Source: Rugalucina vietnamica (taxonomy: Eukaryota; Mollusca; Bivalvia; Lucinida; Lucinidae). From it: a stretch of DNA of 64,000 bases. Within the stretch, counting starts at the first letter, position 1. Every line of letters begins with the position of its first letter. The translations under genes were made by a program, and so were the position numbers. Location of the stretch: positions 565,501-629,500 of the forward strand of contig OZ024884.1 in NCBI GenBank assembly GCA_964017185.1, in the 5' to 3' direction. Under the pieces are notes generated by a model. It was not told the DNA's origin. It searched no databases and worked only from the letters and a program-made list of their open reading frames with translations. Positions 1,119 through 59,376 of the stretch are shown piece after piece.

Positions 1119-1217
1119 TTATACAATAGTAAAATAGACATTAGAATCCTTTGTGAATATGCCACCGGTTTCAAAGTGTACAACCGTAGGGCCTTTGTCG
1201 CAGTCTTGGACACCAAA
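1119..1217 (-). pseudogene. Stranded terminal exon for an amidase-like domain (paralogue of the last exon of gene C)
   Basis: A 99-nt exon with an acceptor (CTTATAG before 1217), 32 open codons and a TAA. It matches the terminal exon of gene C (26,051-26,149) in length, phase 0 and all but about 5 of 32 residues, including the VQDC, GPTVVH and GGIFTKD words. The intron and flank, out to about 1.36 kb, also match those of gene C. No partner exons for the linker or the rest of the amidase-like domain were found between 1.2 and 4 kb, and the preceding gene A ends in its own stop. Phase 0 does not fit the phase-1 exons of gene A. I read it as the remnant of a lost C-terminal module; alternative splicing from exons I failed to see is the other option. 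Confidence 0.6.
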
Positions 1218-1439
1218 CTATAAGAATAAAACACAAATGATTAGGTCAAATAGTAGCACAATAAAAAAAACAACTTTTGAATAGTGTTTCTAAGGTACAC
1301 CATTCATTAAATATTAAAGATAAAGATAAAGGCAATTTGAAGAAAGGCACATTGACCTATTTAATATAAAAAAAAACTCATCTCATCTCCAAACACTCCC
1401 ATATGGAACATGGGCCATGGAAAGTAGGTACATCCATTT

Positions 1440-1885: not shown

Positions 1886-2233
1886 GTATGAATGCTTTCT
1901 CTCACTTTAGAAAACAGACATACGCCACTGGATCTTGCATATGTAGTCTTTTCAAAAACTTATGATTACGCAATCGCTCTGCTGCTTACGATTCAGTGTG
2001 ACCGGCACTTAATATACGTGAATAGTAACGTTAGCACATTAGTAGAATAACGTCAAAAGTATACGATTGTGTGCTTGGCTGTCATTGCGAAAATTAAAGC
2101 TGGTGGAAAGCCGGAACTATCAAGCTCAATACTAGTTTAAATGAATGAGATATATATTGGTATTAGCTGTGAAACATATGAATGGGTCTTATTAGTGGTC
2201 TATGGGAACGATAATTAGTTTAAACATATAAAT

Positions 2234-2239
2234 TTTATT
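2234..2239 (-). terminator. Poly(A) signal AATAAA of gene A
   Basis: AATAAA on the minus strand lies about 65 nt past the TAA of gene A at 2303, in an AT-rich tract. It fits the 3' end of the short form of gene A. Confidence 0.5.
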
Positions 2240-2302
2240 CAAATAAATACATACATAAATCATACATTTACATACAATACAAACTAGGATTAGAATTGAA
2301 GC

Positions 2303-5300
2303 TTAAAACTTATTTAAATCTTCTCCAGACAGGCCTCTGCCCACTATAGGAGGGGTTGGTGTCGGTGAAGTAGTGTGGACAACTGATCCTGGAAAAATAA
2401 TGGCACTTTATTGGTACACAGTAATATAAAACAATCTAATATTTGTATCAATTGTAGACTTATAGCTACCAAATAATTAGAACATTTTCATTTATAGGTG
2501 TAAAGACTCAGCCCACTATAGGAGGGGTTGGCGTGGGTGAGATGGTGTGGACAACTGATTCTGGAAAAAAAATAATGGCACTTTAGTTGTACACTGTAAA
2601 ATAAAACAATCTGATATTTTGTATCTATTGTAGACTTATAGCTAGTTGTCAATTTGGGTTTTTCCCACCACGGTTTTTGGAGTGGAAGTTTCAGTCTGAT
2701 TGCGCCTTTTCCTGATCACTGTTTTCTTGTACCTTTGTATAGCTACCAAATAAGTAAAACATTTGAATAGAATTTGCACAGAGCGCTTTACCATTCATTT
2801 AAAAGGCTTTACGACTCAGAAATTGGCTTCTACATATATCCATAAACTTCAAAACTACGAAAACATTAAGCGCCACAACGGTTTGGTTTAACTCAGTTTT
2901 TTTTTTTAAATTAATAGCCTGGCGTCCCTTTCATGGGACATAGACAAACAGAATAGCCCCAAATGGGACGCCGCAGAACGCGGCGTCCCATCTGGGGATA
3001 TTCTGTTTGCTTGGAGGAATTTCATCGAAAAATGCTATGAAAATTAAACATCACTCCTAACACCCCTAAAAATTAAAGTGGACTCACCCAATGATAATGA
3101 TGGGAAAATGCATTCGTTAAATATGGGTTAAGTAACCACAATTGGACAAATTTACCTTTGCAGCGTTTATAACAGTATCGTGCATTACGTTATTGTAACT
3201 TACTGGCTTTGGTCATTCCATAAAGGACATATTACACAAACAAATTGCTTTATAGTGGTTCAGTCAGGCTCTGTAACTATAGTGAACGACGGAAAGAGAC
3301 AAACAGATAGCTGGTATTCAAACGAAAAAGACGTAAACTTTAACGCTCAACTCAATGCGCGCTCACAAAAAGTCAGAGAAAATCATTTAAGGTGAAATAA
3401 ATAATACAACATAAATCAATAAATAGATAGAGGATATTTACTTTTTTGAGTTGAACACCAAATATATTTCATCGAGTGAGTTGAAAACATGAAAATTTTC
3501 TCGAGTGCGTAGCACGAGTGAAAATTTAGATGTTTTCAAGTCACGAGATGAAATATATTTGGTATTTACCGATAAAAAGTAAATTTTCTTTTTATTTTAT
3601 ACAATACACGGGCATTTTCCTATTCACATTTAGCAGGCGGTGAAAATGCAAAAGACAAAAATTTTTGAAAACACAAATAATTTTGGTACCACATTGTTCC
3701 TAACGTTCTAACTAAGAAAATGAATACCCACACTTTATGTTTTCGTTCGTAAATAACGGAGTTATAGGCATTTAAATTTCTGAAGTGAGGCACATTTAAT
3801 GACGTCAAGTGAATGGAAACGTCAGAAGTAATCCAAACTCTACAGTGAAAATATCGGCTGATATCAATCACTAGTGAAAATATCAATATCAATTCTGCAG
3901 TGAAAATATCACTTTTATCCATTTTTGATATACATTAATTTCACTGCTAAGTATAAAATAAAAGAGTATAATAAATGACAAACCTGCTGATATTGTCTGG
4001 CATGTGCAGTCATTACGCTGTTTGGAATCTGAAAAGAAAGGAAAAGGTACAAGTAGGCAATGACATATAAAAAAAAGTACAAGTAGGCAACGATCAGGAA
4101 AAGACGCAATCAGAAAAAGATTCCCACTCCAAAAACCGAGGTGGGAAAAAACTATATTAACAATCAGGTACTTATACCATGAAAACATATCAAGTATCAT
4201 TGCCTAAAAGAAGAGTGTACAACGTTATAGTCAAACGGCCTAAAAGAAGAATGTACGTAGACCCATGCATAAATTAACCGTGTAAATATGCATCATATAT
4301 CTGGTTTTGTGGAATATGAACAGATACTTCATTCATAACTAAATTGTAAAATCTTTGAAGAGGGTACATGCTGCAAATATTGTTTTTATTTTTTCAATAT
4401 GTTGCTCCGACTTCAGAATTCCTATTCTGAGAAATTCATTATCGGGTTAGATTCATTTTCTAACCGGCGTTTTATATATTCGGTTCTGTTTGGATAACGC
4501 TAGTCCTTGTATCGACTATCCCGTAGAAAGTTGCAAAATTAAAGTATTTTCCTTTGGCTCCATTTCGCCAAATATAAAGGGTCACTAAAGAGGCTTAAGT
4601 AGCCGAAACCATGGTATGGCCCATCCCTTCTCTCATTAATATGCTCACTGATCTCTGTTTTATTTTTACTTGCTATTTCTGCAGCTGATGTTGTGCCGTG
4701 TGGCGGCCCTAAAAAGTCTCGCCGCACATCATCCATAGCGCAGATTATATTTTCCTTTTGATTTTTTGAGATCAGCGAGGTTATTCTGAGAAATTAGAAA
4801 TTCATTATCGGTTTAGATTCATTTTCTAACCGATGTTTTATATATTTGGCTCTGTTTGGATTAATGCTCACTGCTCTTAAAGGATCTCTTTTTTATTTTT
4901 GTTCATTTCCATAAATATATATAAAGTGAGTGAATATGTTTTGCTCACGGAAACAAACCAGTGGCCGTGGGAATCGATCTTATTACCCTATTATGCGTCC
5001 GGCGCACGCACTTGTCATTAAGCCACCACGACACCCTATGTGCTACTTTGACATATTCAATAGTCGACTTATATACATACACATGGGTATTTTAAAGCAA
5101 ATTACGATGTAAACCTTTGAAATTGCAGTATATTTATCTTGCAATCGTCGGCGGTTTATAAAGTGTTACTTATCAGGGTTCAGTACCCGAAACTGCGCAA
5201 TATGGCCCATACCACCCCCTTTGAACGTTTTCACTGCTCCTGAAGGATCTTACATTAATATGTCATTTACATGTACGGACCATCACCAGGGACAAGTTAA

Positions 5301-8300
5301 AATCGACTACTCACACGTATGGTCCACATGCATAACGAAAGCTAACGGACAGTCATATGTTCCCAAAGGCATATTATGTAAATCTGTCCAAACTGAAATT
5401 TGAAAAAAAATATCTTTTATAATATCAAATGATTCCTCTGTAGCATACAAGTATACTTAAGGAATGAAGAAACGCAACAAACACTTCGGGGTATTGTACG
5501 CTGGTATACAAGTATACCTAAGGAATAAAGAAACGCAACAAACACTTTGGTGTATTGTAGGCTGGCATACAAGTACACTTAAGGAATAAAAGAACGCAAC
5601 AAACACTTTGGGGTATTGTAGGCTGACTTTGTAATACAAGCCTGTGGTGTAACCGATCTTATTACATGAAACCAGCAGGTAAAGTCACTATGTCGGCTAC
5701 GTATGATTGATGGCGCGCAAATTACCTCAATGACCCGCAAGAAACATGATAAATTAAAATCAAAATTTTAACCAAAAAAACATTTTTATTGATTTGTTCA
5801 GGGGCCTGGATAGCGTAGTGGTTATCATAATCGCTTATCATCTTTACTTTGCGGTCTTGGTTTGATTCCGAGTTAATGAACGTGGCAGGATAGTGGTAAA
5901 CAATCTAAGGTCGAATTTTCTACACCGCATATGATCACAAATCGCTGTCAATCGAGCCTTCATGAACGCGTTATTCAAATAAATTCTGCGATTTTCCCAT
6001 GGCATGAAGTTTAGAACCGTAATTAAACTTACTGGATTTTTGTGAAAAACATCCTAAATGGTGTGGTTGGCCAGCCTCTAGGTAAAATTTGCTGTAAAGC
6101 TCTGGAATATAGCGAACATTGGTATTACATAAGACAGTGACAAACATGGTGTCTCCTTTATTCAGTATCAATAAATTCTTATATTTTTCTAACCCTATAC
6201 CTAATAAATGAAACCCAGATCAAACCAGTTCCGGGAGGTAAGCATATTTGACAAGTTCTTTATATTACCTTCAAGATTTATCTACACTCAAGTGATATTC
6301 AACTCAATGAAGTAAAAATTGTATAATGTATCAACATTCAATTAGGTTAACTAAAGACTTTTCATGCGTTTAATAACATTATTGGATCCGAAGTTTAAGT
6401 AACCTTTTTGTTTTATTTGTGTTTATTTATGGCTGAATGAGCATGATAATAAATAAAAATGCAGCATTTTTATCACTTTTTCTGTAGCATAATTATGTTT
6501 ATAAACATAATAAAATTTAAAAGTTAAGAAATGGTTGGTAAAACCTTAAACGGGATCTTCCCATCGGTGTTTCGTGATACCTTCACGGAAGGGGAACGAG
6601 GTACCAAACTGGAGCGGAGAGAAGGCTAGCCAGCTGATATATGAAAACCTTTGAGAAGCTCCTTAAGTTAAACATTACAATGCTATTTCAGCTGGGAATT
6701 TGGATTAATAGTGGAAAGGTCAAATAAAAAATGATTCATTGACTAGTTTCGGTAGACAAAAGGATTTATCTACAATCAAAATAATATTCACCGAACAATC
6801 AAAATAATATTCACCGGGTGAATATTATTTTGATTGTTTGGTGTAACCGAAGCCGAGCGGCATCACTGAATATATTTTTAGGTAGATAAATCCTTATATC
6901 TATAGGTAGCTGTACCTCGTTGAAGTCAATAATTGAATAATGTCAGCATTCACTAGAGTAGTATGCGAAATACTGACATGCATTGTAAAGGCATGAACGT
7001 CAATCTCATTAACTTAACCAATTGTCATTGTTGTTTTTATTATTGCTACTAGTTAATTATTATTTTAATTTACTTACGTTGGAAGTTATAATTCGCTCCA
7101 CAGTGATCTTTGGTGTTCGGAAATTCTGTGAATAAAAATGTGTTTAATACAAATCATATGAACCGCATTAATCTCAAACGTATATTTTATCTATACACAA
7201 AAGGAATGACTTCTGTCTAAACGTGGGACTAGTTTGACCGCCAGCGATATTCCGCATTCGTTCTAATTAGCGCACAGTGCGCCTAACTTTTCAAAATGAT
7301 TTAAAGTTAATGTAACAAAAATATCATTCTAATAAGCGCACTCTACGAACCAAACCAACACATTAACTTACAAAATAAACATGTCAAAATAATCAATTTC
7401 ACTGCCATTTTAGTGTTCCAATCGTATCCAAATAGCGTTTGACCATTTAATGTTACGTTTTAATGTGGTAAATGGGATATTTTTGTGTAAAAATTCTGTA
7501 AATATACCAATATGCTAGTCGAGCAGTGTGCGCTTATGCACACATTTTTCGGAAACCAGGGTGTGCGCTTATTGGAGCATGTGCGCGAATTAGAATTAAT
7601 ACTGCATTGTGTGCTTTTATACAATTGATTTGTCATCATGTAACTTCAATAGCTGCATTTGCATGTTAAAACATGGAGCGTGTTTCACATGCCATATTCT
7701 GCTAATGTGAACTGAGCACAACCTAATCCCCTGAGGTCAACCGAAAGGGTCAAATTTTTTCATTGATCTTTGTATGGCAAAGATATTTTGTTGTATACCC
7801 CATTTTGTTGTAACCGTTCGAACGTTTAAAACTGGGGTACCAGTGGTTGATGGTTATTCCGGAAGAACTAAAATACTCACTATAAACTTGACTATTAACC
7901 CTTTTTTACTATTTTCATTTGATATTAAACAAATTGTTAGATGTATATTAGTCAATGATTCTTCCCAAAGCTAGATTTTATACCAATTTTGTGGTTGCTA
8001 GGCAACTGTTAGGCTTGAAACGGCTTTTTGACCATGCACTCTTCTTGCTTAGCATCCACGCATGTTGCAAATCAAAAAACAATCGACATAAGTGATATAG
8101 CTGCACATGTGGTCTATTAATCAAAAGACACAACTGATAAGAAGACTGTTCCAAGTGATGATTGAACTCGTTTAACATAAATGTGCATTTTTTTTTCGAA
8201 TCCATGGACACATCAGGGGTTATAATATTGTACAGATAAGCATACTGTCAAATCTAGCCATCACAAAACACTAACACTTAATGCTCGGAGCCTGTGCTGA

Positions 8301-11300
8301 CGTGCGTTTGTGCATATGACTTCATTGCACCGAGTGTGTTAGCGGACATTACGAAAACGTGTCCATGTTATATACAGATGTTTCCTAAGTTGTAAAAATC
8401 AATAATTTTCAGAAGAAATACAAATTGATATTTTTTATAATATTTTAGCTCAAAACATACATTGTGGGTACTCGTTATAACCGCCTGGCCGAGGCGGTTC
8501 TAACATGTACCCACAATTTATGTTTTGAGCAAAAATAGAGTTTTAACTGAAAATTTTCATTTTTACATATGAAAAAGTTTTGTATATTGCATTGGCAAGT
8601 TTTCGTAAAGGGACTTACCACGTAGCATAGTGAACCGAAACTTGAAAATTTCGCCGTGGCATCTACACGTGGGCAGGGTTCCGGAGGCTGCAGCTGGAAA
8701 GGTTATCATCATTGAACATAACTATATATTATTCGGCCACTGGGCTACTCTCATGAATACTTTATTAGATTTATACTACTTTTAATGTAGGTAAAAGCTA
8801 AAGGTATTCAACTTACAGTTTTCCGTTAGAAAATTAGAATGATATAGGAATTTGCCCAATTCACTGGATTGGACAACATACATTTCTAACGGTAAATATG
8901 TGACAGCGGTCAACGCTGACTCAGTTTGCCTTTTTCTATAATCTCCCTACTTGAACAGATGGACTAGCCGACCACGCCCAAATATTAATATTAAAGTTGC
9001 CACCAATACAGTAACCCATTTGCCAAATAATATACACATGGAAATAAGTTAGTGAACCCCTTTTATATCCAAACTGATATGAAAATTATACGTGACAATA
9101 AGCGATCCCTCTTCTGAGCTGAGTGCAAATTGTGGGATTAAAAATGCTTGTCTGAGAAACTGGTTAAATTTCCAATACCAGTGGATTCACACTGAATACA
9201 TAGATTACATAATTATATTGACAGGAATGTTTTATGCCAATTTGAGTCGGCATTGAGTTATAAAGAATATTGTACTGTCTTCGAACTTTTTAACACCCTA
9301 TATACGTTCATATCAGCGTAATTTCGGACCTTTCAACTCTTGAAGTTCGATTTAAAAATGATAAAGCCAAACCATATATTTAGTAATACGTATGTCAGAA
9401 ATGTTTGTTGATTTTAAGGATGCCGCTGCCAGTGTATTTCTTACAGCGGTGGTGGACGCGGGCTCGATATAGTGGAAGCTTACCTTCAGCCATTTTCTGT
9501 ATGGCAAGTGTCACACAACCATGCCCTTCCGAATTGTGATGGTGCTGGTACAGGTCAGCGATAAGTCTAAATGCTGGAATAAGAAACAAATATTTGGCAG
9601 GTCATAGCATTTAAGTTTATTATCCAGATGAAAAGCACATGCAGGTTTTTTGATATCAGGTATCTCTCAGTTTTGAGAGCAACGTGTATTTCATAACGAC
9701 CGTAGCTAAGTATGGTGGGTAATATTTTTATAGGGTAAATTAGAGGTCCATACGATCTGTTACTCGCTTGACAGAACGCAGTTTCTTACCAGTATAGAAA
9801 TACAAGTCAAAACGTTTGACAAGATGACGGGCACCCTTCATTATCATTTAACCCATTTTTGACGAATGATCTTGCCCACCATCATCGTCTGGGCGAGTTC
9901 ACTTCCATTTTGAGGGGCGTCAGGAGAGATTTTGTTTTCTCATTTTTCGATGACAATTTCTCTACTCAAAGAGAATAGCCCCAGATGGATCGCTGCGTCC
10001 AGCGGCGCACATCTGGGGCTATGCTGTTTGCCTATGTTAAACAAACCAAAACGGACAGCAGGGCCCAGTTGATCAAAATTAACGATGTAACAATTCGTCA
10101 AAGTTTTAAATGGCAATATCACAAATCCACTGTTATTTTTGTTGAATCATGTGAGAATCCTTTGCATTTGGGAATGCAAAGGATTCTCACATTTTAGCAA
10201 AAAAAAATAACAGTGTATTTGCTTATGTAGTCAGCATTTATTTCACGAGTTGAGGTCTTAGCGATGATGTTAAGCTAACGCAGTTTTGAACAACTGGGCC
10301 CATGCTTATTTAAGAAATGAATTTCATTTTTCTGATGTTCATGGAGCTATGAACCGCAGTGGGTCGCGTGCAAAGTGAACCGCAGTGGGTCGCGTGCAAA
10401 GTGAATGACCCACTGCTAGCGACCAACTGCGGTTCATAGCTCCATGAACACCAGAAAAATAAAACTCATTGCTTATATTTACATTCATTCCTCTCTGTCG
10501 CTTGTTGAAAAATCACCAAGGCGGTCACATTTACCAGCAAACAGAGAATCTAAACACAGTGTGTGTTCAAACAGCGGAACGGCGTCGACGTTTACAACGT
10601 CCAATCAAATTGGCGAGATTCATGTTTTTTGACGTCAATGTTTGGATTACGTCACGTCGCGTGACACAATGTTGTTCATGGAAGTATGAACACAGATGAA
10701 CATCTAATGGTTCATCTATGGAGGTTTTAGAAAAATGTAAATATTACATTATGAACAGGTTCAATAAAAAGTACCTGAAATAACATCCATACATGGGTTG
10801 TCCCTCCATATATTCAAGATTTCTGAAATAAAAAATCAAATCAACAAAATATTGTAATGCCTATAATCTGAACGTTTCTTTTTAGACTAACATGTTTCCA
10901 AATTTATATCGTATACACTATGTATTGATTTCATTAAATGAGCCGCATCGTGAGAAAACCGGATTTTTGTCTATGCGAAAACAAAGGCGCACATCAGCTT
11001 CGCGGTAACCGCGAAGCTGATCAGCGCCTTTGTTTTCGCCACTCGGATAGTAAACTTTTTTTTTCTTTCTAAATCCGAAATTTCAAGTTTCTAATCATCT
11101 TCTGAGACTGTACAGCCCGGTTTGTGTCGGACCAGGTCGGAAATCCCGAAGCCCGGTTTTCTCACGTCGCGGCTCAAATGTAGGTTTAAAGGCGCTTTTA
11201 CGTGAAGGCATCTCGGAAACAAAATTTTATGGTGACTTGGTTTACAAATTTAAGAAACTTATAGAAAGGAATGATTTTTCTTTTCAGTTCAGAAAACAGA

Positions 11301-12057: not shown

Positions 12058-12107
<50 letters not shown>

Positions 12108-12629
12108 GTCAATACATACCGTCAAGAAATGACCTTGAACTTCAATACTCACCTATCTCCATTAGGTCATTTACCTGTCAACAACTACCGACAATGTCAT
12201 TTTTAATTTGTAAAAAAATGAAAATTTTCTGTATAAAATGTTTGATATTTTTCTTATTTTTGCTCAAAACATAGATTGTTGGTGCACGTTAGAACCGCCT
12301 CGCCGAGACGGTTCTAACGAGTACCCACAATCTATGATGAGCAAAAATAAGAAACATAGGTATACCCCTGCAAACCCCAGTTTTTCTATATAAAAGTGGG
12401 GTTTAAGGAGGTATACATTACACGGACGTATTTTCGTCATGGTACATTGCATGGACAAGTTTTCGTAATGTTATCAAATAACTGTGTCACCAAAACTGCG
12501 GCATACCATTGTAGTCCCTGTAGTGAGTACAATGTATGTGGTTCGTCGATTGCATGTGGTTACTTCCGGGGGTGGAGGACACTGTCTGACTTTGCCCGAA
12601 TAAATCTTGGCAAACCGTGATAATCAACC
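2303..12629 (-). CDS. Gene A: secreted-type protein with two CxC-ending cysteine modules (exons 2-10)
   Basis: Function unknown; I do not recognise the family. Exons, 5' to 3' on the minus strand, are 12507-12629, 10775-10822, 9484-9573, 8619-8693, 7078-7125, 6033-6101, 5315-5392, 3984-4028 and 2303-2388, about 220 codons. The first exon was not found. Each exon has AG and GT at its borders, and every internal junction is phase 1. The start of exon 2 (LIITVCQDLFGQ) looks like the end of a signal peptide. The body has C-x17-C-x24-C-x19-C-x-C followed by C-x24-C-x19-C-x18-C-x-C, two related halves. The last exon is a Ser/Thr/Pro tail ending in TAA. Exon lengths 3-9 are identical to gene B, and introns still align in places. 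Introns are full of MITEs, SINEs and reverse-transcriptase tails. Unlike gene C it has no ShK, mucin-like or amidase-like exons. Confidence 0.72.
2508..2560 (-). other. Duplicated, possibly alternative, terminal exon of gene A
   Basis: A 53-nt copy of the Ser/Thr/Pro tail exon lies 172 nt upstream of the 2303-2388 exon. It has the same acceptor (TTTTCCAG) and phase 1, encodes SVVHTISPTPTPPIVG and then stops with TGA. About 140 bp of the surrounding intron is duplicated with it. Either copy could serve as the 3' exon, so the tail could differ by splicing. Confidence 0.55.
2652..2746 (+). mobile_element. 3'-end fragment of the reverse-transcriptase element family
   Basis: The segment reads TTTTTCCCACC..GGTTTTTGGAGTGG..TGATTGCGCC..TTCCTGATC..TTGTACCTTT, the same 3' terminus that follows the reverse-transcriptase frames at 23.4 and 50.4 kb on the opposite strand. 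It is a short, 5'-truncated copy. Confidence 0.7.
2890..3131. mobile_element. Palindromic MITE, family F4, copy 1
   Basis: A central hairpin (GATGGGACGCCGC and its complement, flanked by AATAGCCCC and the CAAACAG word) lies between weak TTAACTC/GGGTTAA ends. Related copies are at 9,848-10,040 and 44,288-44,522. It interrupts an intron that is uninterrupted at the matching place in gene B (about 49.5 kb). Confidence 0.7.
3440..3595. repeat. Long imperfect inverted repeat
   Basis: The arms read TTTTTTGAGTTGAACACCAAATAT and so on, and return as ATATTTGGTATTTACCGATAAAAAGTA, with an inner ACATGAAAATTTTCTCG/CGAGTGAAAATTTAGATGTTTT stem. It is probably a fold-back MITE in an intron of gene A. Confidence 0.6.
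4043..4190 (-). mobile_element. 3'-end fragment of the reverse-transcriptase element family
   Basis: It carries the GTACAAGTAGGCAA..GATCAGGAAAAG..GCAATCAGAAAAAGATTCCCAC terminus in the minus orientation, running to a TATACCATGAAAACATAT boundary. A short 5'-truncated copy lying upstream of exon 9 of gene A. Confidence 0.7.
4430..4890. repeat. Local duplication plus fragment of the GATCCTTTAAGAGCAG repeat family
   Basis: A block with GAGAAATTCATTATCGG..TTAGATTCATTTTCTAACCG occurs at about 4431-4495 and again at about 4785-4860. Between and around it are minus-strand pieces of a dispersed repeat (GGCCCATCCC, CTCATTAATATGCTCACTG) also present at 5.16-5.25, 44.94-45.07, 51.83-51.96 and 58.50-58.57 kb. 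Confidence 0.5.
5445..5627. repeat. Tandem repeat, 61-bp unit, three copies
   Basis: Units begin ATACAAGTATAC at 5445 and 5506 and ATACAAGTACAC at 5567. Each contains GAA(A/C)GCAACAAACACTT and ends GTATTGTA(C/G)GCTGG. It lies in the intron between exons 8 and 7 of gene A. Confidence 0.85.
5800..5995 (+). mobile_element. tRNA-derived SINE, copy 1 (GGCCTGGATAGCGTAG family)
   Basis: Begins GGGGCCTGGATAGCGTAGTG, with an A-box-like start and a B-box-like GGTTTGATTCCGAG. A second copy with the same order of blocks lies at 52,792-52,985, ending in similar ..GATCACA..CG..AATAAATTC sequence. Inference: a short interspersed element with a tRNA-like head. Confidence 0.6.
6770..6845. repeat. Tight hairpin with AATATTATTTTGATTG arms
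   Basis: ACAATCAAAATAATATTCACC occurs twice in direct order and is followed at once by its complement GGTGAATATTATTTTGATTG. It is flanked by shorter inverted GATAAATC.. words (6765 and 6885), so the whole 6720-6900 block may be one fold-back element. Confidence 0.7.
7261..7595. mobile_element. MITE, family F3 (AATTAGCGCAC ends), copy 1
   Basis: The left end TTCTAATTAGCGCACAGTGC and the right end TGCGCGAATTAGAA are inverted repeats. The interior is AT-rich and non-coding with further GCGCAC words. A second, interrupted copy in opposite orientation is at 28,624-29,696. Confidence 0.7.
8400..8610. mobile_element. Palindromic MITE, family F1, copy 1
   Basis: Family hallmark: a near-perfect palindrome centred on CGCC(T/G)...GGCGG between GCTCAAAACATA..ATTGTGGGTAC arms, followed by GAAAATTTTCA and ending TTGCAT(G)GGCAAGTTTTCGTAA. 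Nine copies lie in this window. This one abuts exon 5 of gene A. Confidence 0.75.
9848..10040. mobile_element. Palindromic MITE, family F4, copy 2
   Basis: It starts TTTAACCC and contains ..GACGAATG..GGGCGAGTTCAC and the AATAGCCCCAGATGG hairpin with a mutated centre, ending CTGTTTGCCTATGTTA. It matches 44,288-44,522 over its whole length. Confidence 0.7.
10145..10450. repeat. Two hairpins, one containing a 27-bp tandem duplication
   Basis: At about 10,150-10,195 GTGAGAATCCTTTGCAT is followed by its perfect complement. At about 10,337-10,448 GTTCATGGAGCTATGAACCG pairs with CGGTTCATAGCTCCATGAAC, and the loop side repeats CGCAGTGGGTCGCGTGCAAAG twice. Probably remnants of fold-back elements in the gene A intron. 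Confidence 0.75.
10940..11175. mobile_element. Fold-back MITE, family F2, copy 2 (best preserved)
   Basis: Terminal inverted repeat GAGCCGCATCGTGAGAAAACC at the left and GGTTTTCTCACGTCGCGGCTC at the right. The internal stem GCGAAAACAAAGGCGC..AGCTTCGCGG is followed by its complement. It lies directly upstream of a reverse-transcriptase fragment. Confidence 0.8.
11185..11915 (+). pseudogene. Diverged 3' part of the reverse-transcriptase element
   Basis: A plus-strand relic. The first 250 bp still encode pieces matching the C-terminal end of the 24-kb frame (DLVYKFKKLIERNDFSFQFRK, NFNVMRQFACL) but with frame breaks. The downstream part matches the 3' untranslated tail of that element (TCGGAGCTTCTTGTCTGTTGC, CACGAGGACCGAAC, GCTGAGGGTGAGGTTAG), down to the TGATTGCGCC..TTCCTGACC terminus. 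It is clearly older than the 24- and 51-kb copies. Confidence 0.7.
12061..12104. repeat. Poly(T) run of 44 bases
   Basis: An uninterrupted T run; on the minus strand it is a poly(A) tract. It is likely the tail of a retroposed copy, though no parent was identified beside it. Confidence 0.85.
12190..12475. mobile_element. Palindromic MITE, family F1, copy 2
   Basis: GAAAATTTTC..TTTTGCTCAAAACATAG and the palindrome GAACCGCCTCGCCGAGACGG, followed by the TATACCCCTGCAAACCCCAG..ATATAAAAGTGGGGTTT block and GCATGGACAAGTTTTCGTAATG. It ends about 30 bp from exon 2 of gene A. Confidence 0.75.
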
Positions 12630-13186: not shown

Positions 13187-13195
13187 AAACAGTTA

Positions 13196-13986: not shown

Positions 13987-13989
13987 CCA

Positions 13990-17224: not shown

Positions 17225-17329
17225 TTTTGTCGTCTACTTTCGATATCAAAATTGAAATTCTCGATTATTTGACTTTTGGTGTAAGCCGTTTTATCATATG
17301 GAGATAAAACCCGGGTCGTCTTAAGTCTC

Positions 17330-22093: not shown

Positions 22094-22189
22094 TTTCAGG
22101 AAATTTGATTTCGTCGGATCAAAGACTGATAGTCCGTGATTATAACGGCTGGATGCTGACGCTTTATTTCTTGTCGTTGGGCGGATGGG

Positions 22190-22207
22190 TTCAGATTTTT
22201 GACACCA
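22190..22207 (-). other. Primer-binding site
   Basis: Directly inside the 5' LTR the element strand reads TGGTGTCAAAAATCTGAA. The TGG start is the usual complement of a tRNA CCA end. The tRNA itself cannot be assigned by eye. Confidence 0.65.
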
Positions 22208-47966: not shown

Positions 47967-47969
47967 CTG

Positions 47970-48107: not shown

Positions 48108-48147
<40 letters not shown>

Positions 48148-49225: not shown

Positions 49226-52200
49226 TCAGTACCTAGACGCTACTGGAGGGGTTGACGTCGGTGAAGTAGTGTGGACAACTGATCCTGGAAAAATAATGAA
49301 ACTTTATCTGTACACAGTAAAATAAAACAATCTGACATGTGCATCAATTATAGACTTGTAGCTACCAAATAATCAGAACATTTTCATAACGTTTGCATCG
49401 AAAGCTTGAACATTCAGTTAAAGGTTTATAGGCTCAGAAATTGGCTTTTACGTATATCCATGAAATTCAAAACTAAGAAAACATTAAGCGCCAACATTGG
49501 TTTGGTTTAAGTAACCACAATTGGACTAATTTATCTTTTTTGTCATTTATTCTTTATCAATATAATACATTTACATGAAATGTATATATTGCACTGCGTG
49601 AGCATCTATGTAAAAATAGTTTATGATTTGCGCGCCAATTGGCTTGAGTTTGTGAATAAAATTAAGTTCTTTTCCAAATTACATAAATAAAATGTTGTTA
49701 AACAAAACTTCTCTGAAACAATTTTGCTATTTCAATAGACATGAGACAATAGACACGTACATGTATAATACGATTTCAAGATGTAATGAAAACCCATTGG
49801 ACTGGGAGTCGTCTAACTAATGGACTGGGAACATTCTAGTATGAGGAAAAATAAAAAAAGAAAAAAAATCATCTTTTAACTTGTAGGTAGAACAAATGCC
49901 TTTATTTGTCGTCCTTTGTCGTTCAGAGATTGGTCAAGAATTACTGTTCATATGGTTTGTTGCAGCGTTCGGAACAGTGTCATGCATCAAGTTATTCTAA
50001 CTTACTAGCTTTAATCATTCCTGAATGACATATTACACAAGCAAATCGCTTCATTGATGCTCTGTTAAAAAGTGAATGATAGAGACGAACAGATAGCTGG
50101 TGTTCTATCCGCATAGACGTTATTAACTTTAACATTTAACTCAGTGTGTGATCACAGAAAAAAAAACATTGTGAAATAAATAAACAAATAAACCATAAAT
50201 GAATAAGAGCGTGAATGAAATGACTCACCTGATGATATTTTCTGGCAGGAGCAGTAATTGTGCTGATGGGAATCTGAAACGAAAGAAGAATGCATAATGC
50301 TATAATGAATAAAATATAATGGTTAGATCCTTTGGATGCAGTAAAAACATGCAAAGGGAGAAATTGTTTTGCCGATACCCGTTAGGGGTGAACCCATGAT
50401 TTCCCGATATTAAAAGGTACAAGTAGGCAAAGATCAGGAAAAGGCGCAATCAGAAAAAGATTCCCACTCCATAAACCGAGGTGGGAAAAAACCAAACTAA
50501 CAATCAGGTACTTATACCATGAAACATATCGTAAGCCGAATGAGCAGCTATTTTCCCAATAGGTGGCCACTCAGTTACCTTAACTTAACTAAAAATATGA
50601 AAACATACATAAGGCGCCAACAGCACAAAACTGGCGGGCTTAAACCGGTTTTACAGGTACCTAACCTCACCCTCAGCTTCTGCAGTGGTTCACAACATTT
50701 AGTTAGTTCTTCGGTCCTCGTGGTGAATCTCTAACTAGTCAATGAATCATCAAGAACAAACAAATAAATCATGATAAACATCCTGATGAATCAAAAACCA
50801 GGACTCACAGATTGAGTAAGCTGCCCGACGATGGAGATCCCTGGGCGCCGAATAACCTACTAACTCCGGAGCAAAAGAAAAACACCAGTTGGACCCCGGT
50901 GGGCCAAGCAACAGACAAGAAGCTCCGGCCCCAACCAACTAAAATGAATAGCTTTAAGTCGGGGCCATCATAGAGTCTGACGCCCGACCCACCGGCGTGC
51001 AATTAAAGAAGGCAGCATAGTTATCAACCATGATTGGGTTAAAAACTAAGCATGCAGACTGTCGCATAACATTCAAGTTATAACCTATACGTCTGTAACG
51101 TGATATGATTTTTCCGAACTGAAGAGAAAAATCATTTATTCCTTTAAGTTTCTTTAATTTGTAAACCAAGTCACCATAAAATTCAGGTTCCGAAAGGCCC
51201 TCACTTAAAAGTGTCTTTAACCCAACATTATATTTGGAAATCAATTCATAGTGTCTACGATAAAATTTAGAAAAGGTTTTTCGAAGTTTATGATACCGAT
51301 AGCCCTGTTGGAGAAGTTTTGCCGTTAAACATTTATTTCGAGCGTTGAAGTCTGTAACATGATTGCAGACTCTAGCAAACCTAATAAGTTGCGAAATGTA
51401 TACACCATAAGAAGCACGACGAGGAACGTCACCATCCAAAAAAGGAAAATTTACTATATCAAAATCAAAGTCATCGCGCTTATCATAAATTTTGGCGCAC
51501 GCACCTGACAATGTGCTACCTCGATCCCCATGTCCTCCTAAGTTGACATAATTATTTGGGCCAATATCTGCCAAAAGGAGTCTTATCAAATTTTAATAAT
51601 CGAGTTATAAACATACACCATGGGTATATTTATGATTTTGATGGTTTACCATCACCAAGAACAAAGTAAAATCGTATACTCACAGGAATAGTCCACATGC
51701 ATGACGAAAGCTAACTGACAGTCATAGCTTCTCAGAGGCATTTTATGTAAATGTGACCAAACTGAAATGAAATGTCTGTAATATTATCTGGGTGAGTGGC
51801 TGTGTAGCAAAAAAAATAAAAAGTAAAACAGAGTTCCTTTAAGAGCAGGGATAACATTAATGAGAAAAGGGGATGGACAATACCGCGGTTTCGGCTACGC
51901 AAGCTTCATCAGTGACCCTATAAATCTGGCAACATGGAGCCAATTACTGCAATTTTACCAATTTCAACTGGGATGTCAATGTATAGACAAGCAAATCTAA
52001 ATAGAGCCAAACGATTAATCTTATTCAGATGAATGTATTTAAACTGAGAATAAATTTCTGATTTCTCAGTATATCATCGCTGATCTTAAAAGGACCAAAA
52101 TGAAAATATAATCTGCACTATGGATGATGTACGGGGAGACTGTGTAGCATACAAGTACATATAGCTGTTAACGTATTCGCTTGTCAGGTGGTTTTCGCAG

Positions 52201-55200
52201 CCACCAAACACCGCAACACGCCAGAAACCGCGTCTGTCTAGGCAATGTGGCGATATTTTGGCTGAACTCAAAAGCAAATTGCAATATTTTACTGCCACTT
52301 CTCCATACCATACTAAAATAGAGCTAGAATTGGTATGATACATGCATAAAATTTCAAATCTTCGGTCTTTGTTTAGAGAAATTCTTATTTTCAAATTTGT
52401 AGCAAGTCATTTGATTATGGTGCTGGTGATAATGTTTGTTAGTATCTTCCGGAATATCTTCTCATATTTAATACACGAAAGCTTTTAGATATCCGTGCAA
52501 TCTGTGTTTTCCAGTTATCTTCACAATTGACCTCGAGGGTTCTTTTTCAGTGTCGGTCTGGTCCCGAGGTTATAAAACTTTTTTCATGTCCAACTCAGTT
52601 GAGCATGAAATTCAAACTGCTCACTATTACTGAAATCACCAAAATTGGTTGAAATTTCAGGTTCGATTGCTAAAGAATTTAATTTATCCTGCTTTAATAC
52701 AAATGCCAACAAGTGTTGGCATTTCAACATTTATGAGCAGGTTAAATCTATTTCTCAGCTCAGCTGAGCATGAAAATTAATAACCTCGGGGCCTGGATAG
52801 CGTAGGGGCTGATGCACTAGCTTATCACCTTTGCGGTACAGCTTCGAATCCGAATCAATGCAGGTGGCAGGAAAGAAGTCGCCCGTGCAAGGTCTGGATT
52901 CTTCCAACATGTTCATGTACGATCACATAACGCTATCGACCGTTCAATCTGAACGTGCTATTGATATAAATTCCACTAGCTGTCTAGTTTTTTCCCACTA
53001 CGGTTTTTGGAGTGGGAATTTCTTTCTGATTGCGCCTTTTCCTGATCATTGCCTACTTGTACCTTTCTATGTAGTTCAAGAAAATTAATTTTAGCTCTAT
53101 AACTTAACTTACTGTATTTTTGTGAAAAACAGCCTGAATGATGTTGATGATTAGTGTCTTGGTAAAATTTGCTGAAAAGGTCTGAAATAAAAAAAGATTA
53201 TTGCAAGAACCACAAGAAGAACGTGAATAGATGAAAAAAAAAGGAAAATATATGGATATGTTTTTCACCTTTTAAACCTTAAACGGAATCCTTTTTTACT
53301 ACCTCGAGTCTGTGCGTCTGCACAGTCGTTGTGCTGTTGGGATACATGTATCTCATAAATATCGTAGTAGCATTTTCTAATAAAAATGGAATAAATTTAT
53401 GGAAATCATCAGGTAAACTCGGCGAGGCAGTTCGAACGGGTACCCACAATCAACGGCTTAAGTAAAACTAGTTCAAAAATAAAAAAAATAATGTATTTTT
53501 ATTTTACAGCAAAATAAATCTCTGTATATTGCATAGGCAAGTTTTTGTATTGTTGTGGGAGCATCCAGTGAAAAGCAATGTCATCATCCGCCTTAACTAA
53601 ACAAAGCGTCATTATTGTTTACTTACTTTGGAGTATAGCCCAAATATTTTGACTATGTCGGTTGGCCCCTGACATAGATAAACATTTCTTGATCGTTCTG
53701 CTTAAATAAGCCTGTCAATCATGTGAAGCTTTGATGGTAAACAATACGAGGGGTGTTCTTTAATTCTTGTCATTTGCTTGATTACTTTTCCCGTGGACTT
53801 ACAACGAAAATGTCGTTTATATGTGGTGAAAGTCCAATCCTTTCTGATCAGATTAGTACCAAAATTGTTGCTGTCTGACGCAGGATCCTATAGTAATCAC
53901 ATTCTTAAACAGTGCACAGTAATGACACTGCGTTATTTTCCAATTAATTTACAATATATAATTTCGATCACAAGTAAAGAAAATGCTATTACATTTGCAA
54001 CACTAAATATAGGCGCCCACTTCCATTTTACAAACAAATTTGCTATTCATGTGAGCATCAGAAAACACTTTTGTAGAATGTTTTCACTTTTACTGTATGT
54101 AATTATTGGCCCTGCTTTGTGACGTCATAACAATTTGAAAATACGCCATTTAAAATCACTGCAGAGGTAACGTAATTCAATATTTTTATATTTTTCACAT
54201 TGGATTGTCTGGTGAATATATCAAATTAATTGTTATCTTAATTTTGTCTAAAATGGCCTAAATGGACATTCGCTGTAAATTGCTAAACTCGAAATTTAAC
54301 ATTTTACGACAGGTTTAAGGAAAAGCAGGCGCACAGTTTCTAGGGGAGCTGTTCGTCTCTATCGTGATAGAATCCCAGTCAAATTTTCTGATTGAAAACG
54401 TCTGCCAAAACGCTTCTTAAGCATATCAAGTAAATAGATTTCGGGACTTTGTAGTGGTATTAGCGCATGGTTATATTGTGGTATGGACGACTCTTTTAAA
54501 GGAATTTTGTGTTCTTTTTCAAAATGTTACAACTCATAATCAAGGTTTCAGAGGATGAACAATCAAAGACTTTTATCAATGGAATAAGCAAAGGTCTTGT
54601 AAAATCAGCATTAAAAGTTTTGGATCAGTCATAACCTGGAAATGAAATTATGAGGCTTTGAAACCTCTATACCGAGCTTCTTGCAACTTAATAATTCATA
54701 ACAAACAGGTGTAGTGCTATGTTACAGTTCTCGTAAAAATTGCAATTTCTGTTTTAGGAAAATAACTTTTCGCCTATGTCTTAGTAGGGTAATGAAGACT
54801 CCGCAAGTATAAAATTGTTTTTCTAACCGTTCTAATTCAAACATTATTTTGCCTATTGTGACTGGCTGAAGTACGTGTATGCGGTGTCATAGAAGTGCCC
54901 CTCTTCAGAGACTCAGTTTGCCATGATTAATTGTATCATCTTCAAATCGTTGGGTGATTTCAATATCGTAAAGAACCTATCTATAACTACCAAGTAGTTT
55001 TCTTCTGGTAAAGATGAAGGTTTAGGAGAAAACGAGTCGATGACAAGAATTAAAGAACACCCCTCGTATATGACCACATGCCTCACAAGGCACTGGAAAA
55101 ATGTGTAAAATAAATAGGCCATGTAAAACCGGTTTAAGCCTGCCAGTAACTTTGTGTTACTGGTCGTTCCAAGGCGATACTTCTGTGGTGGTTCTTTTTG

Positions 55201-58200
55201 TTTTATGTCTTGGTGTTTAAATTTTTTGTGCTGTTGGCGCCTTATGTATGTTTTCATATTTTTAGTTAAGTTAAGATAACTGAGTGGCCACCTATTGGGA
55301 AAATAGCTGCTCATTCGGCTTACGATATTTTTCATGGTATAAGTACCTGCTTGTTAGTTTGGTTTTTTCCCACCTCGGTTTTTGGAGTGGGAATCTTTTT
55401 CTGATTGCGCCTTTTCCTGATCTTTGCCTACTTGTACCCTTTTCTAGTGTTTACAAAACTTTGTCATGTGAGGTCAAGCAGCACGGTCAAAGTATTTGCA
55501 CTAAAATTATTATAATGATTTACTTACGTTGGAAATTATAATTCGCTCCGCAGTGTGTTCTGGTGTTCGGAAAATCTGTAAAGATAAAAGCGTTCGTTCG
55601 TTCCAAGGCGATAGTACTGTTGTGGTTCTTAATGTTTTATGTTTTGTTTTGAATTTTTTGTGCTGTTTTGTATTTGCACCTTAAATACGTTTTCATAGTT
55701 TTTAGTTTAGTTCGAGTAACTGTGCGTGTGCCTATTGGGAAATAGCCGCTCACTCGTCTTACGATATTCTCTTATTATCAGAACCTGGTTGTCATTTAGT
55801 TTTTCATCTATATGAGCCAACAATCTCCAAATGCGAAAACAAAGGCTCAGATCAGCTTCGCAGTAACTGCGAAGCTGATCAGCGCCTTTGTTTTCGCTAC
55901 TCGGATAGTACAATTCCACTTCTTCTTAAATCCGAAGTTTCAAGCTTCTAGCTTTTTTCTGTGCTTGTACAGACCGGTTTGTGTCGGACCTGTTCGGAGA
56001 CCACACTGTTTGTTTTCCCACGAGGCGGCTCATATAATTGTACTAGATGTATAATAAGACTTGGCGTATGATAAGATGTACCTACCATTGAGATAAGCGA
56101 ACTGAAGCTTGTAAATTGAGCCATTGCAGTTACACGTGGGCAGGGTGCCAGAGGCTTCAGCTGGAAAGATAATCATACATCTGTTTGGATAAATTACAAG
56201 AGGACCATTGGTCCTTTAGCTCACCTGAGAGATTTGCTCATTGTAAGCTTAAAGGTCAGATGATGATACCCCGGAGCCATGTACGTATGTACCTCGGAGT
56301 CCTGCACGTTTGACCCCAGAGGCAAGATTGACAGGATTTGTAAAGATTACGATGCATTGCTACAGACAAAATATAAAAGTTCTAGAGCGCATTTTAGAGA
56401 CGAAGATATTTTATGTTGTCTTTGTTTTCATGGCAATAATTCGGGGGCTAATGATTCCTGGGGCGGGACCATTTTTGATCCCATTGGCATAATTGGCAGG
56501 ATTTATGTAAAGCTACACTTAATATTGCTGGTGCATAATAAATTTAAAAGCATTTGGTCTTGTGGTTTCAGAGAAGATTCTTTTTCAAGAAGTTCCAATT
56601 ATAAGCCTATGGCAGATAATGACGCCCCTTAGGCGTGACCTGTATGAACAACAGGGGTACGGTTGGTAGTATTTATAACGAGGAATAAGATTCTCCATGC
56701 ATTTACCATTATAAGCCTATGGCAGATAATGAACCGCCGGCGTGGCCTGTATGGACCCTCGGGGGCACATTTAGCAGGATGTATAAAGACGATTACTATA
56801 TGTAGCTACACATAAAATATAAATGCTCTAGGTCTTGTTGTTTCAGAGAAAAAAAAAGACTCATGTTATTCTCTTCCCTTTGTAAGGCTTTGTCCGGGAA
56901 GGTGGGAGCTAATGACCCCGAGGCGGTGCCATTTTTTACCCCGGGGCATGAATGGCATGAAGCTATAAATGGATGCATACTAAATATAAAAACTTTGTGT
57001 CTTGTGGTTTGAGAGGACAAGACTTTTTACATATTTCCCATTATAATCCTATGGCAGTTAATGACGCCCCAGGACGTGACCCGTATGGACTCAAGGGTTA
57101 CGATTGGCAGGATAACTATATATTGCTATACACAAAGTATGAAAGCTTTGGGCCTTGTGGTTTCGGAGAAGAACGTCTGTTTTCCAATTGTAAGTCAATG
57201 GGAGCTATGTGTTGCCATAGAAACCAAAGTTCTGACCCGACCTGGCTTAAAACCTTATGCAACCTTTCCCCTACCTCAACAATCTTCCAGATAAAATTTG
57301 ATCGTAATTGGCACATCGGCCTTAGAGATATTCATGTTTGAAAGTATTAAAGGACCCATTCGCGGACGCACTCACGGACGCACGGGCGCCAGCTCGAGTA
57401 TCATCCTATGAGATCATATTGTGAGCTTTCGGCTCAGGTGAGCTAAACAGTAATGATGAGTTTTTTTAATTGTCTGGCAACATGGAACCATAGCAAATAA
57501 CGGCGATTTTTTATATTTTAACTTGTCATTCAATACATAGATGAGCAATTAAAATTGTTCAGATGAATGCATCTAAAGTGAAAAAAACATCCACGCAAAA
57601 TCGTGAGATTTTTAGAAACACCGTGGCGGGCGTACTGTATGTAAAAAGGAAGTTTACCTTCAGCCATTTTCTGTATGGCAAGTGTCACACACCCATGTCC
57701 TCCCGAATTACGATGGTGCTGATACAGGTCAGCAATCAGTCTAAATGCTGGAAATAAGAACATATAAGGCAGTACAGTATTACTTGTGAGACGATGGACC
57801 TTATGTTATGTCTTGCCGTCATAAACTTTTTATGATAAGCATGACCTGCGAAATGTGCTTTACAATGTAAAACCCCATGTAAACAACTGAAGCTTGTATA
57901 TGTAAAGATAGTTTACCACCTTACCACTAAAGAACGCTCAGAACTTCGTAGAAGTTAGTCGGAAGTCAGGTCGTAGGTCAGTCGAGAATAAGCTTTGACG
58001 GACTGGGAGCAAAAGCAAACCATACATTTCTGAAGGCCCAAATGGGCGTGAGCCCAAGCAGAGTTTTAGATTTATGTATCACAAACAATATAAGCTGTTT
58101 AAAATGTATTATTTAGCAAGGTTTGTTTCTTAACTATCATCTTTTAAACCGCTGTCACACTATTGCGTATCGACTCACGTATCTACGGCATATCAAGATA

Positions 58201-59376
58201 CGAAAGGTACGTCGTACATACGTGGGCATTCGTAGCTCATACTCCTTGATACGTAGCTCATACGCCGAGACATAACGTTTTTTATGTGTGCACTTAAAAA
58301 TTCGTAACACGTACGTGGCAGGTCCTATACGACGTACATACGACACACACGCGATTTGTACCTGGAATGACCAAATAACTCACAGGGTGTTTCGATTTTG
58401 ACATTATTCACATGCTCAGCAGCTTAGAAGTGAAAGGCTGTGGTACATGTAAAACTAAGACGGACATGCTTATATAAAAAATATGGATAATAAAAATTAA
58501 AACTGAGATCCTTTAAGAGCAGTTAAAACATTAATGAGAAAGAGGATGGGCCATACAAATATGAAAAATATAAAAATATGGAATCTCATTTTAATAAAAC
58601 GGAGTCCTCGTCCGTCCTATATAGAGAATACCTGTAATGGCATCCATACACGGGTTGTCTCTCCATATGTTCAGTATTTCTGAAACAAAAGAATAAACGG
58701 ATTTTGCTTCAAATCGCCAATATATATTGCTGTGCCAATAAACTTGATCGTGTTTTATTGTGTTTCATTTCGACCACATTGACACCCTGCTTCAAATCTG
58801 AAACAAGCCCCATAGGGAAATTTATGTATTTGTATACAAAACTGCATGTTCCACGTTCCTATAGCCGTATGCATGTATATTAAGTAAAGTTGGCACGTAC
58901 AGTCATGTCAATGTTTTGAGCAAATATATACGACTAACATAATTAATATGTTTTTATCTGAAATTAGCAAATTATCGAATAACCGTGTCACCAAATTAAT
59001 TGTATAAAAAATTGACTAAAACTGTAGGCAACATTGATTAACATACCGTTGTATTCCCTGTAATTTGTACAATGTATGTGGCTCGTCGATTGCATGTGGT
59101 TACTACCGGAGGTGCTGACCATAACCATGTGATTGCGACCGTCCTTGACATTGGTAGAGAAGCTTGACCCTTGGCTTTGACCTTGATATTGTCCTGATTG
59201 ACCTTGACTTTGAAACTGGTATTGACCCTGTTGGTAATTATCCTGGAAGTGTCCCTGTTGGTATGAGTCGTGATATTGACCCTGTTGGTAATTATCTTGA
59301 AATTGACCTTGCTGATATGACACTTGCACTGACTGACCTTGCCCGAACAGGCCCTGGCAGACCGTTAGTATTAACC
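49226..59376 (-). CDS. Gene B: secreted-type protein with Gln-rich repeats and two CxC cysteine modules (exons 2-10)
   Basis: Exons, 5' to 3' on the minus strand: 59047-59376, 58632-58679, 57658-57747, 56086-56160, 55528-55575, 53113-53181, 51684-51761, 50229-50273 and 49226-49284; about 280 codons, first exon not found. Every junction is GT-AG and phase 1. Exon 2 starts LILTVCQGLFGQ (likely end of a signal peptide), then carries about 69 extra codons of Gln/Tyr/Gly repeats absent from gene A. The body keeps C-x17-C-x24-C-x19-C-x-C and C-x24-C-x19-C-x18-C-x-C. It ends with SVVHTTSPTSTPPVASRY and a TGA. It is the closest relative of gene A. No ShK or amidase-like exon follows. Family and function unknown; extracellular location is inferred. 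Confidence 0.72.
50416..51491 (-). pseudogene. Reverse-transcriptase element, copy 2 (5'-truncated)
   Basis: Nearly identical to the 24-kb copy from the 3' terminus to 51,491. The open frame 50,954-51,491 matches its last about 180 codons with one visible change (NGFS to NDFS). It lacks the reverse-transcriptase active-site region and an 86-bp tail segment present in copy 1. Beyond 51,491 the sequence is unrelated. Near-identity implies recent retrotransposition or a shared recent source. Confidence 0.8.
51830..52790. other. Intron of gene B with dispersed-repeat fragments
   Basis: A GTTCCTTTAAGAGCAGGG..GAGAAAAGGGGATGGAC repeat copy lies at 51,833-51,960. The rest is AT-rich, including a CCAACAAGTGTTGG short palindrome near 52,710. 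I support no gene; the 102-codon open frame at 52.1-52.4 kb has no domain words. Confidence 0.45.
52792..53067 (+). mobile_element. tRNA-derived SINE copy 2 joined to a reverse-transcriptase 3' tail
   Basis: The SINE (52,792-52,985) has GGGCCTGGATAGCGTAG and the B-box-like GCTTCGAATCCG. It is followed directly by the TTTTTCCCAC..GATTGCGCC..CTTGTACC tail (52,985-53,067). The junction suggests one inserted next to the other. Confidence 0.6.
53380..53560. mobile_element. Palindromic MITE, family F1, degenerate copy
   Basis: Retains CGGCGAGGCAGTTCGAAC, GGGTACCCACAATC and the TATTGCATAGGCAAGTTTTTG end; the left arm is lost. Confidence 0.6.
53747..55066. mobile_element. Mariner-sized TA-flanked element (1,320 bp) with perfect 27-bp TIRs
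   Basis: The left CGAGGGGTGTTCTTTAATTC.. and the right exact complement (..CACCCCTCG) are 27-bp inverted repeats bounded by TA at 53,745-53,746 and 55,067-55,068. Size and TA duplication fit Tc1/mariner. I could not read transposase motifs in either strand. The longest frame (53,778-54,122) has no HTH or DDE words, so it is either decayed or non-autonomous. Confidence 0.75.
55120..55439 (+). mobile_element. 3'-end fragment of the reverse-transcriptase family (well preserved)
   Basis: From AAACCGGTTTAAGCCTGCCAG to TTTGCCTACTTGTACC, without coding sequence. Very close to the tail of the 24-kb copy. Confidence 0.75.
55580..55810 (+). mobile_element. Older reverse-transcriptase tail fragment
   Basis: AAGGCGATAGTACTGTTGTGG..ATTGGGAAATAGCCGCTCACTC..TTACGATATT; it lacks the last about 80 bp, being cut by the following F2 MITE. 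Confidence 0.6.
55811..56033. mobile_element. Fold-back MITE, family F2, copy 6
   Basis: ATGAGCC at the left, the stem GCGAAAACAAAGGCTC..GCTTCGCAGTAACTGCGAAGC and complement, and GAGGCGGCTCAT at the right. Confidence 0.75.
56215..57447. mobile_element. 1.23-kb element with TTTAGCTCACCTGAG inverted ends and internal repeats
   Basis: Exact 15-bp inverted ends (56,215-56,229 and 57,433-57,447), with weaker pairing further in. The interior is made of about five diverged units of about 200 bp, each with words like CATTATAAGCCTATGGCAG, AATGACGCCCC and TCTTGTGGTTTCAGAGAAG. No intact frame. Inference: a non-autonomous DNA element. It occupies the intron between exons 5 and 4 of gene B. Confidence 0.7.
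59047..59376 (-). CDS. Gln-rich repeat exon of gene B
   Basis: Contains four 9-residue units of the type YQQGQFQDN (DNA unit 27 bp, about 59,215-59,330), then QSQGQSGQYQGQSQG. The paralogous exon of gene A (12,507-12,629) has the same ends (LI(L/I)TVCQ, GSNHMQST.HIHC) but lacks the repeats. The difference is exactly 207 nt, so the frame is kept. Low-complexity Gln/Tyr repeats occur in adhesive, matrix and mucus proteins. Confidence 0.7.

What the first reader, a model, noticed from the sequence alone, without database searches (positions are those of the whole stretch)
1119..59376. A tandem family of three modular secreted genes with an unrecognised double CxC domain
By matching small exons between 1-13 kb, 26-48 kb and 49-60 kb I recover three head-to-tail minus-strand paralogues. 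Seven or eight consecutive exons keep length, order, phase and cysteine spacing (C-x17-C-x24-C-x19-C-x-C, then C-x24-C-x19-C-x18-C-x-C in A and B), while introns are filled with transposons. No single open frame betrays these genes. I know of no named domain with this pattern. Tandem duplication with variable C-termini is typical of secreted recognition, defence or adhesive families.
Basis: partly seen in the sequence, partly recalled or inferred. Interest (0 to 1): 0.88.

Follow-up and report, generated by a model that had tools for sequence, protein, structure and literature searches.

The report
Three tandem secreted cysteine-rich orphan genes
Three neighbouring genes, each cut into many small exons, appear to make secreted proteins built on a pair of five-cysteine units that matches no domain we could find; they look like working genes of the fast-evolving, lineage-restricted kind that shellfish genomes are rich in.

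Summary
Three minus-strand paralogues, A (59376-49226), B (47966-37380) and C (12629-2303), splice into unbroken frames over 27 exons; all 24 internal junctions are GT-AG and phase 1. The ten module cysteines are invariant. dN/dS is 0.34 for A-C: selected genes, not relics. Corrections: C ends at 2303 with its own stop, so the phase-0 exons at 1.2 and 26 kb belong elsewhere. B carries a Pfam ShK exon (25.8 bits, cut-off 20.9); A carries a Q/Y/G-rich repeat. The two CxC units share intron positions relative to their cysteines (chance about 7e-4), suggesting one duplicated four-exon module, but residue and profile similarity between them give no support. In the 1.09 Gb genome query A matched only these loci beyond chance; query B never ran. 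No relative appeared among 5.8 billion proteins, a collection that does hold molluscs. GDNF/GAS1 similarity is at noise level and its ten-cysteine signature is not met. Likely role: secreted matrix or recognition proteins with a disulfide-locked core and exchangeable ends. A real, new domain in an ordinary kind of family.

The parts
59047..59376 (-). A exon 1: end of hydrophobic leader (LILTVCQGLFGQ), Q/Y/G-rich repeat, first module cysteine
   Evidence: 27-base tandem repeat at 59223-59308
58632..58679 (-). A exon 2 (module 1, C2)
57658..57747 (-). A exon 3 (module 1, C3)
56086..56160 (-). A exon 4 (module 1, CxC)
55528..55575 (-). A exon 5 (module 2, C1)
53113..53181 (-). A exon 6 (module 2, C2)
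51684..51761 (-). A exon 7 (module 2, C3)
50229..50273 (-). A exon 8 (module 2, CxC)
49226..49284 (-). A terminal exon, Thr/Pro-rich tail and stop
47914..47966 (-). B exon 1 (module 1, C1); acceptor and entry phase uncertain
47250..47297 (-). B exon 2
46604..46693 (-). B exon 3
46324..46404 (-). B exon 4 (CxC)
44628..44675 (-). B exon 5
43855..43929 (-). B exon 6
40575..40655 (-). B exon 7
38863..38910 (-). B exon 8 (CxC); acceptor at 38910 or 38901
37380..37517 (-). B exon 9: ShK domain, phase-1 entry; reads on to a TGA stop if not spliced
   Evidence: Pfam PF01549 25.8 bits, cut-off 20.9; sequence
12507..12629 (-). C exon 1 (end of leader, module 1 C1)
10775..10822 (-). C exon 2
9484..9573 (-). 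C exon 3
8619..8693 (-). C exon 4 (CxC)
7078..7125 (-). C exon 5
6033..6101 (-). C exon 6
5315..5392 (-). C exon 7
3984..4028 (-). C exon 8 (CxC)
2303..2388 (-). C terminal exon, Thr/Pro-rich tail and stop; a second copy of the exon lies about 175 bases upstream

Best explanation
A, B and C are intact, separately spliced genes for secreted proteins (219 to 279 residues in the parts modelled). The core is a pair of five-cysteine modules (C1, C2, C3, C4-x-C5), each spread over four phase-1 exons, perhaps from one internal duplication before the three genes split. The ten cysteines should lock a compact, probably helical extracellular core. Because the internal introns are all phase 1, whole exons can be added or lost without breaking the frame, and the paralogues differ in just that way: a Q/Y/G-rich repeat in A, a ShK domain in B, Thr/Pro tails in A and C. 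The most likely role is as matrix or surface proteins (mantle, foot, gut or egg-coat secretion) in which the core binds a partner and the appendages set cross-linking or anchoring. Shown: gene structure, conservation, selection, ShK. Inferred: secretion, fold, duplication of the module. Guess: the role (about 0.4).
For: Unbroken spliced frames over 27 exons, 24 of 24 internal junctions GT-AG and phase 1. dN/dS A-C 0.34 (bootstrap 0.20-0.56); A-B 0.22 and C-B 0.12 with saturated dS. Ten module cysteines invariant in three paralogues. Intron offsets 7, 5, 10 after C1, C2, C3 in module 1 and 7, 5, 11 in module 2, in all three genes; chance within one residue 6.9e-4, not corrected for the second register tried. 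Leader-like ends LILTVCQGLFGQ and LIITVCQDLFGQ in A and C. ShK above cut-off. Gln is 28% of the 88 residues measured in A exon 1.
Against: No start exon found. Between modules 1 and 2 the residue score with cysteines masked is no better than shuffles (180 of 500), and the partner exon scores best for 1 of 4 exons with cysteines counted and 0 of 4 with them masked; profile comparison of module 1 with module 2 gives 1 to 2% probability. No protein matched. No fold could be computed. Function is by analogy only.
Confidence: 0.5

Rival explanations
1. Secreted immune or defence proteins: the fast-changing second module is the recognition face and the trio is a small diversifying recognition set.
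For: Between A and C, module 1 shows 17 synonymous and 9 non-synonymous changes but module 2 with linker 13 and 41 (Fisher p 5e-4). Effector molecules with gene presence/absence variation are described in Mytilus (PMC10138031, title and start of abstract in a search listing).
Against: dN/dS of module 2 with linker is 0.66 between A and C, not above 1; the contrast is absent for A-B (p 0.60); query A found no further copy in the genome beyond chance.
Confidence: 0.25
2. Soluble relatives of the GDNF/GAS1 (GFR-alpha) fold that bind a secreted growth factor.
For: Pfam GDNF was the only family listed for the A core, 13.9 bits, E 0.094, over module 2. C2-x24-C3 equals the spacing in two of the eight GFR domains used (counted by eye), and an alanine follows C3 by three or four places. 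A profile of those eight domains: shuffles with cysteines fixed that reach the real score are 16, 8 and 8 of 300 for module 2 of A, C, B and 37, 28 and 77 of 300 for module 1.
Against: Below the cut-off of 22 bits; nothing for the C or B core, nor for A module 1 or A module 2 alone; nothing in five further queries including the consensus and modules of C and B; 8.7 bits, E 4.1 with the full A protein. CFEM, an unrelated family, scores better on B module 1 (E 0.031). Five, not ten, cysteines (PMC3527400 passages). Profile-profile probability 0.4 to 2.5% and 3%, where 5 of 100 cysteine-fixed and 0 of 100 free controls were as good. No GPI-type hydrophobic tail in A or C.
Confidence: 0.1
3. Decaying duplicates whose matching exons are remnants.
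For: Repeats crowd the introns; no matching protein was found in the collection.
Against: No frame break or lost splice site over 27 exons; dN/dS well below 1.
Confidence: 0.05

Closest known systems
CRP-I cysteine-rich peptide family of Mytilus
   Same: A cysteine-rich gene family of a mollusc that a mussel paper cites as an example of families restricted to Mytiloida (PMC5549309, passages and reference entry)
   Different: Not compared by sequence here; secretion and size of CRP-I are recalled, not read. The present proteins have two five-cysteine modules over eight phase-1 exons.
GDNF/GAS1 (GFR-alpha) domain, Pfam PF02351
   Same: CxC motif, similar spacing of three other cysteines in some GFR domains, tandem domains
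   Different: Five cysteines instead of ten; sub-threshold score in one of three paralogues; no GPI tail in A or C
ShK domain proteins (Pfam PF01549)
   Same: B carries one ShK exon with six cysteines, above the Pfam cut-off when scanned alone
   Different: None was found in A or C; in B it is appended to an unrelated double module

Membership tests
GDNF/GAS1 (PF02351) | Ten cysteines per domain (PMC3527400, passages seen) | tested here: not met
   Five per module in all three genes
GDNF/GAS1 (PF02351) | Pfam gathering score of 22 bits | tested here: not met
   13.9 bits in the A core, none in 4 other queries; 8.7 bits in full A, none in C and B; none in 5 queries
GDNF/GAS1 (PF02351) | Domain fold | not testable with these tools
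GDNF/GAS1 receptors | C-terminal GPI anchor signal (stated for mammalian GFR-alpha in PMC3527400) | tested here: not met
   By eye: A ends PPVASRY, C ends GEDLNKF, no hydrophobic tail; B end unresolved
ShK (PF01549), B exon 9 | Pfam gathering score of 20.9 bits | tested here: met
   25.8 bits for the exon alone; 20.7 bits, just under, inside a longer B query with misjoined junction residues; E 0.00062 in the corrected B protein, bits not shown
ShK (PF01549), B exon 9 | Six cysteines in the domain (recalled) | tested here: met
   Six in 37517-37380
CFEM (PF05730) | Pfam gathering score of 22 bits | tested here: not met
   14.7 bits, E 0.031, in 1 of 5 queries, B module 1
Secreted protein family | N-terminal signal peptide | tested here: inconclusive
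   Leader-like end in A and C exon 1; start exon not identified

The most novel reading that the evidence does not exclude
The double module is a derived, five-cysteine offshoot of the GDNF/GAS1 receptor fold that has become a free secreted binding protein in one mollusc lineage and gains new domains by phase-1 exon capture.
Probability: 0.1. Interest if true: 0.6.

Novelty: new variant of a known kind. Interest (0 to 1): 0.4.

Why it matters
It adds a cysteine framework that reached no cut-off in the libraries searched, and a clear case of phase-1 exons letting tandem paralogues carry different appendages (repeat, ShK, Thr/Pro tail) around one conserved core. Its eight small core exons show how such genes escape open-frame searches. 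Lineage-restricted families as such are reported to be common in mussels (PMC5549309, passage).

Tried and rejected
Rejected: the phase-0 exons at 26149-26054 and 1217-1122 as the 3' ends of B and C; C has its own stop before them and the phases do not join directly. Rejected as proof of relation: the GDNF/GAS1 match (weak, one of three paralogues, absent when the matching module is scanned alone, equalled by CFEM) and a STING chain in PDB (E 0.37). Residue and profile similarity do not support the module duplication; I keep it as probable, 0.6, on intron positions and the CxC alone.

Start exon: 14 candidates in A (64000-59380) and 7 in C (14600-12620) compared, phase 1 only; no convincing pair among the 12 best printed. 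Candidates at 63420 (A) and 13064 (C) look possible but were not among those pairs with each other.

Led nowhere: Pfam, PDB and protein-collection searches for the core., and the B query, used my first splice, which wrongly added residues at exon junctions; searches used the corrected sequence. Paper searches gave no paper on this architecture; two searches looked for selenoprotein retroelements and found none.

Unanswered: whole-genome searches with B, with PF02351 and with the 27/26 kb exons never ran because the machine stayed busy, so B-like or GDNF-type genes elsewhere in this genome are not excluded. Query A itself found only 2 of the 8 core exons of B, which shows the limit of that search. 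In 30 kb on either side, 17 exon queries (CxC exon 8 and tail exons not among them) found no further copy at E 0.05 save one weak exon-5 match 29 kb below the window.

Full report
What is there. Stop-to-stop frames of 120 residues or more show one piece of these genes, A exon 1, and nothing else of them. Comparing all minus-strand frames with one another gave ordered matches between 59-51 kb, 47-40 kb and 12-5 kb, and DNA comparison placed the matches on exons. Splicing at AG/GT borders gave three series of nine exons: A (59376-49226), C (12629-2303) and B (47966-37380), 27 in all, without a premature stop. All 24 internal junctions are phase 1. Four B exons too diverged for plain comparison were found by scanning for phase-1 exons of the right size; resampled sequence reached their scores in none of 60, 60, 60 and 25 trials.

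They are selected. Over 154 codons A-C dN/dS is 0.34 (0.20-0.56), with 21, 21 and 38 differences at codon positions 1, 2 and 3; A-B gives 0.22 and C-B 0.12, both with saturated dS. A and C are the close pair (73% identity over the core against 53% for A-B; dS 0.44) although B lies between them, which suggests that the array did not grow by copying neighbours in turn. Between A and C, module 1 is tightly held (17 synonymous, 9 non-synonymous changes) and module 2 with its linker is loose (13, 41; p 5e-4); between A and B there is no such contrast (p 0.60).

The core. Each gene has ten cysteines in two sets: C-x17-C-x24-C-x19-C-x-C, then C-x24-C-x19-C-x18-C-x-C in A and C, and 26-20-20-1 in B. 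Laid on their CxC ends, the sets have introns 7 residues after C1, 5 after C2 and 10 or 11 after C3, in both sets and all three genes. Random placement gives this within one residue in 0.07% of trials, not corrected for the other register tried. This suggests one duplicated four-exon module. Against it: with cysteines masked, residue similarity is no better than shuffled (180 of 500); the partner exon scores best for 1 of 4 exons (0 of 4 masked); module 1 exon 3 is most like module 2 exon 2, a register shifted by one cysteine; and profile comparison gives 1 to 2% probability. I hold the duplication at about 0.6.

The appendages. A exon 1 has a Q/Y/G-rich stretch with a nine-residue repeat. A and C end in short Thr/Pro tails with stops; C has AATAAA about 70 bases on (by eye) and a second copy of the tail exon upstream. 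B has, in phase, an exon whose product meets the Pfam ShK cut-off (25.8 against 20.9 bits). Whether B ends there or continues is open. The exons at 27.4, 27.1, 26.1 and 1.2 kb are phase 0 and are left as a separate, unnamed unit.

What it is not. No Pfam family reaches its cut-off for the core (the same with a misjoined query). PDB sequences gave nothing at E 10 with one sequence (misjoined) and one match at E 0.37 with the profile. Two searches of 5.8 billion proteins gave 4 and 892 word-sharing candidates and none at E 10 (the first misjoined). A transposase from the same window drew 43 proteins at E 1e-10 from that collection, one of them the window's own, and among the named ones Haliotis asinina and Pecten maximus. 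So molluscs are represented and the negative carries weight, though the search needs shared five-residue words and a fast-evolving family could escape it. In the window's own genome (1.09 Gb, 47 contigs) query A gave 21 matches at E 10: 19 are exons of A (9), C (8) and B (2), and two on other contigs (E 1.0 and 1.9, with stops) look like chance; the tool scores only its best candidates. Query B did not complete.

GDNF/GAS1. The CxC, the spacing and an alanine after C3 recalled GFR-alpha domains to me before the scan (memory, no call). Pfam then gave GDNF 13.9 bits (cut-off 22) for the A core, and nothing for the C core, the B core, or either A module alone, nor in five more queries. A profile of eight GFR domains, taken from letters printed and aligned on their cysteines, puts the six modules above most shuffles: with cysteines fixed 16, 8, 8 (module 2) and 37, 28, 77 (module 1) of 300 reach the real score; with all residues shuffled 5, 4, 2 and 9, 4, 18 (order A, C, B). 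Profile-profile tests give 0.4 to 2.5% and 3%, with 5 of 100 cysteine-fixed and 0 of 100 free controls as good (one row shortened). CFEM scores better on another module. The ten-cysteine signature (PMC3527400, passages) is not met. It may resemble that fold, but it is not filed there.

How it most likely works. A disulfide-rich core, phase-1 exons, and one repeat-bearing, one ShK-bearing and one plain paralogue point to secreted matrix or surface proteins with exchangeable ends. [quoted passage not shown] This is analogy, not evidence of place or role.

Noticed in passing
window 32102-32578 and 33829-34305: Direct repeats of about 477 bases, one mismatch in the 459 measured, flank 1.25 kb holding a single-exon plus-strand frame (up to 33189) with a signal-like start, a Gly/Tyr/Phe-rich product, a TATA-like stretch upstream and AATAAA at the stop; no Pfam match.
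   Followed up: partly
window 23949-24016 and 50912-50979, minus strand: Rfam SECIS_1 matches (39 bits, cut-off 35) at the 3' ends of two nearly identical reverse-transcriptase fragments; in the first copy the frame ends in TAA, so no selenocysteine codon is implied there.
   Followed up: partly
window 27392-27315, 27145-27023, 26149-26054; paralogue 1214-1122: Phase-0 exons of an unnamed protein, with two neighbouring copies of one exon; no Pfam match.
   Followed up: partly
window 37545-38668: A 39-base tandem repeat, about 29 copies, directly upstream of B's ShK exon.
   Followed up: no
window 18116-22243 and 15989-17233, minus strand: A long retrotransposon-type polyprotein frame and a ZNF862-like transposase frame lie between C and B.
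   Followed up: no
L022 (G000:C16:629501-639500), 2036-6208: A long open retrotransposon-type polyprotein frame just upstream of the window.
   Followed up: no
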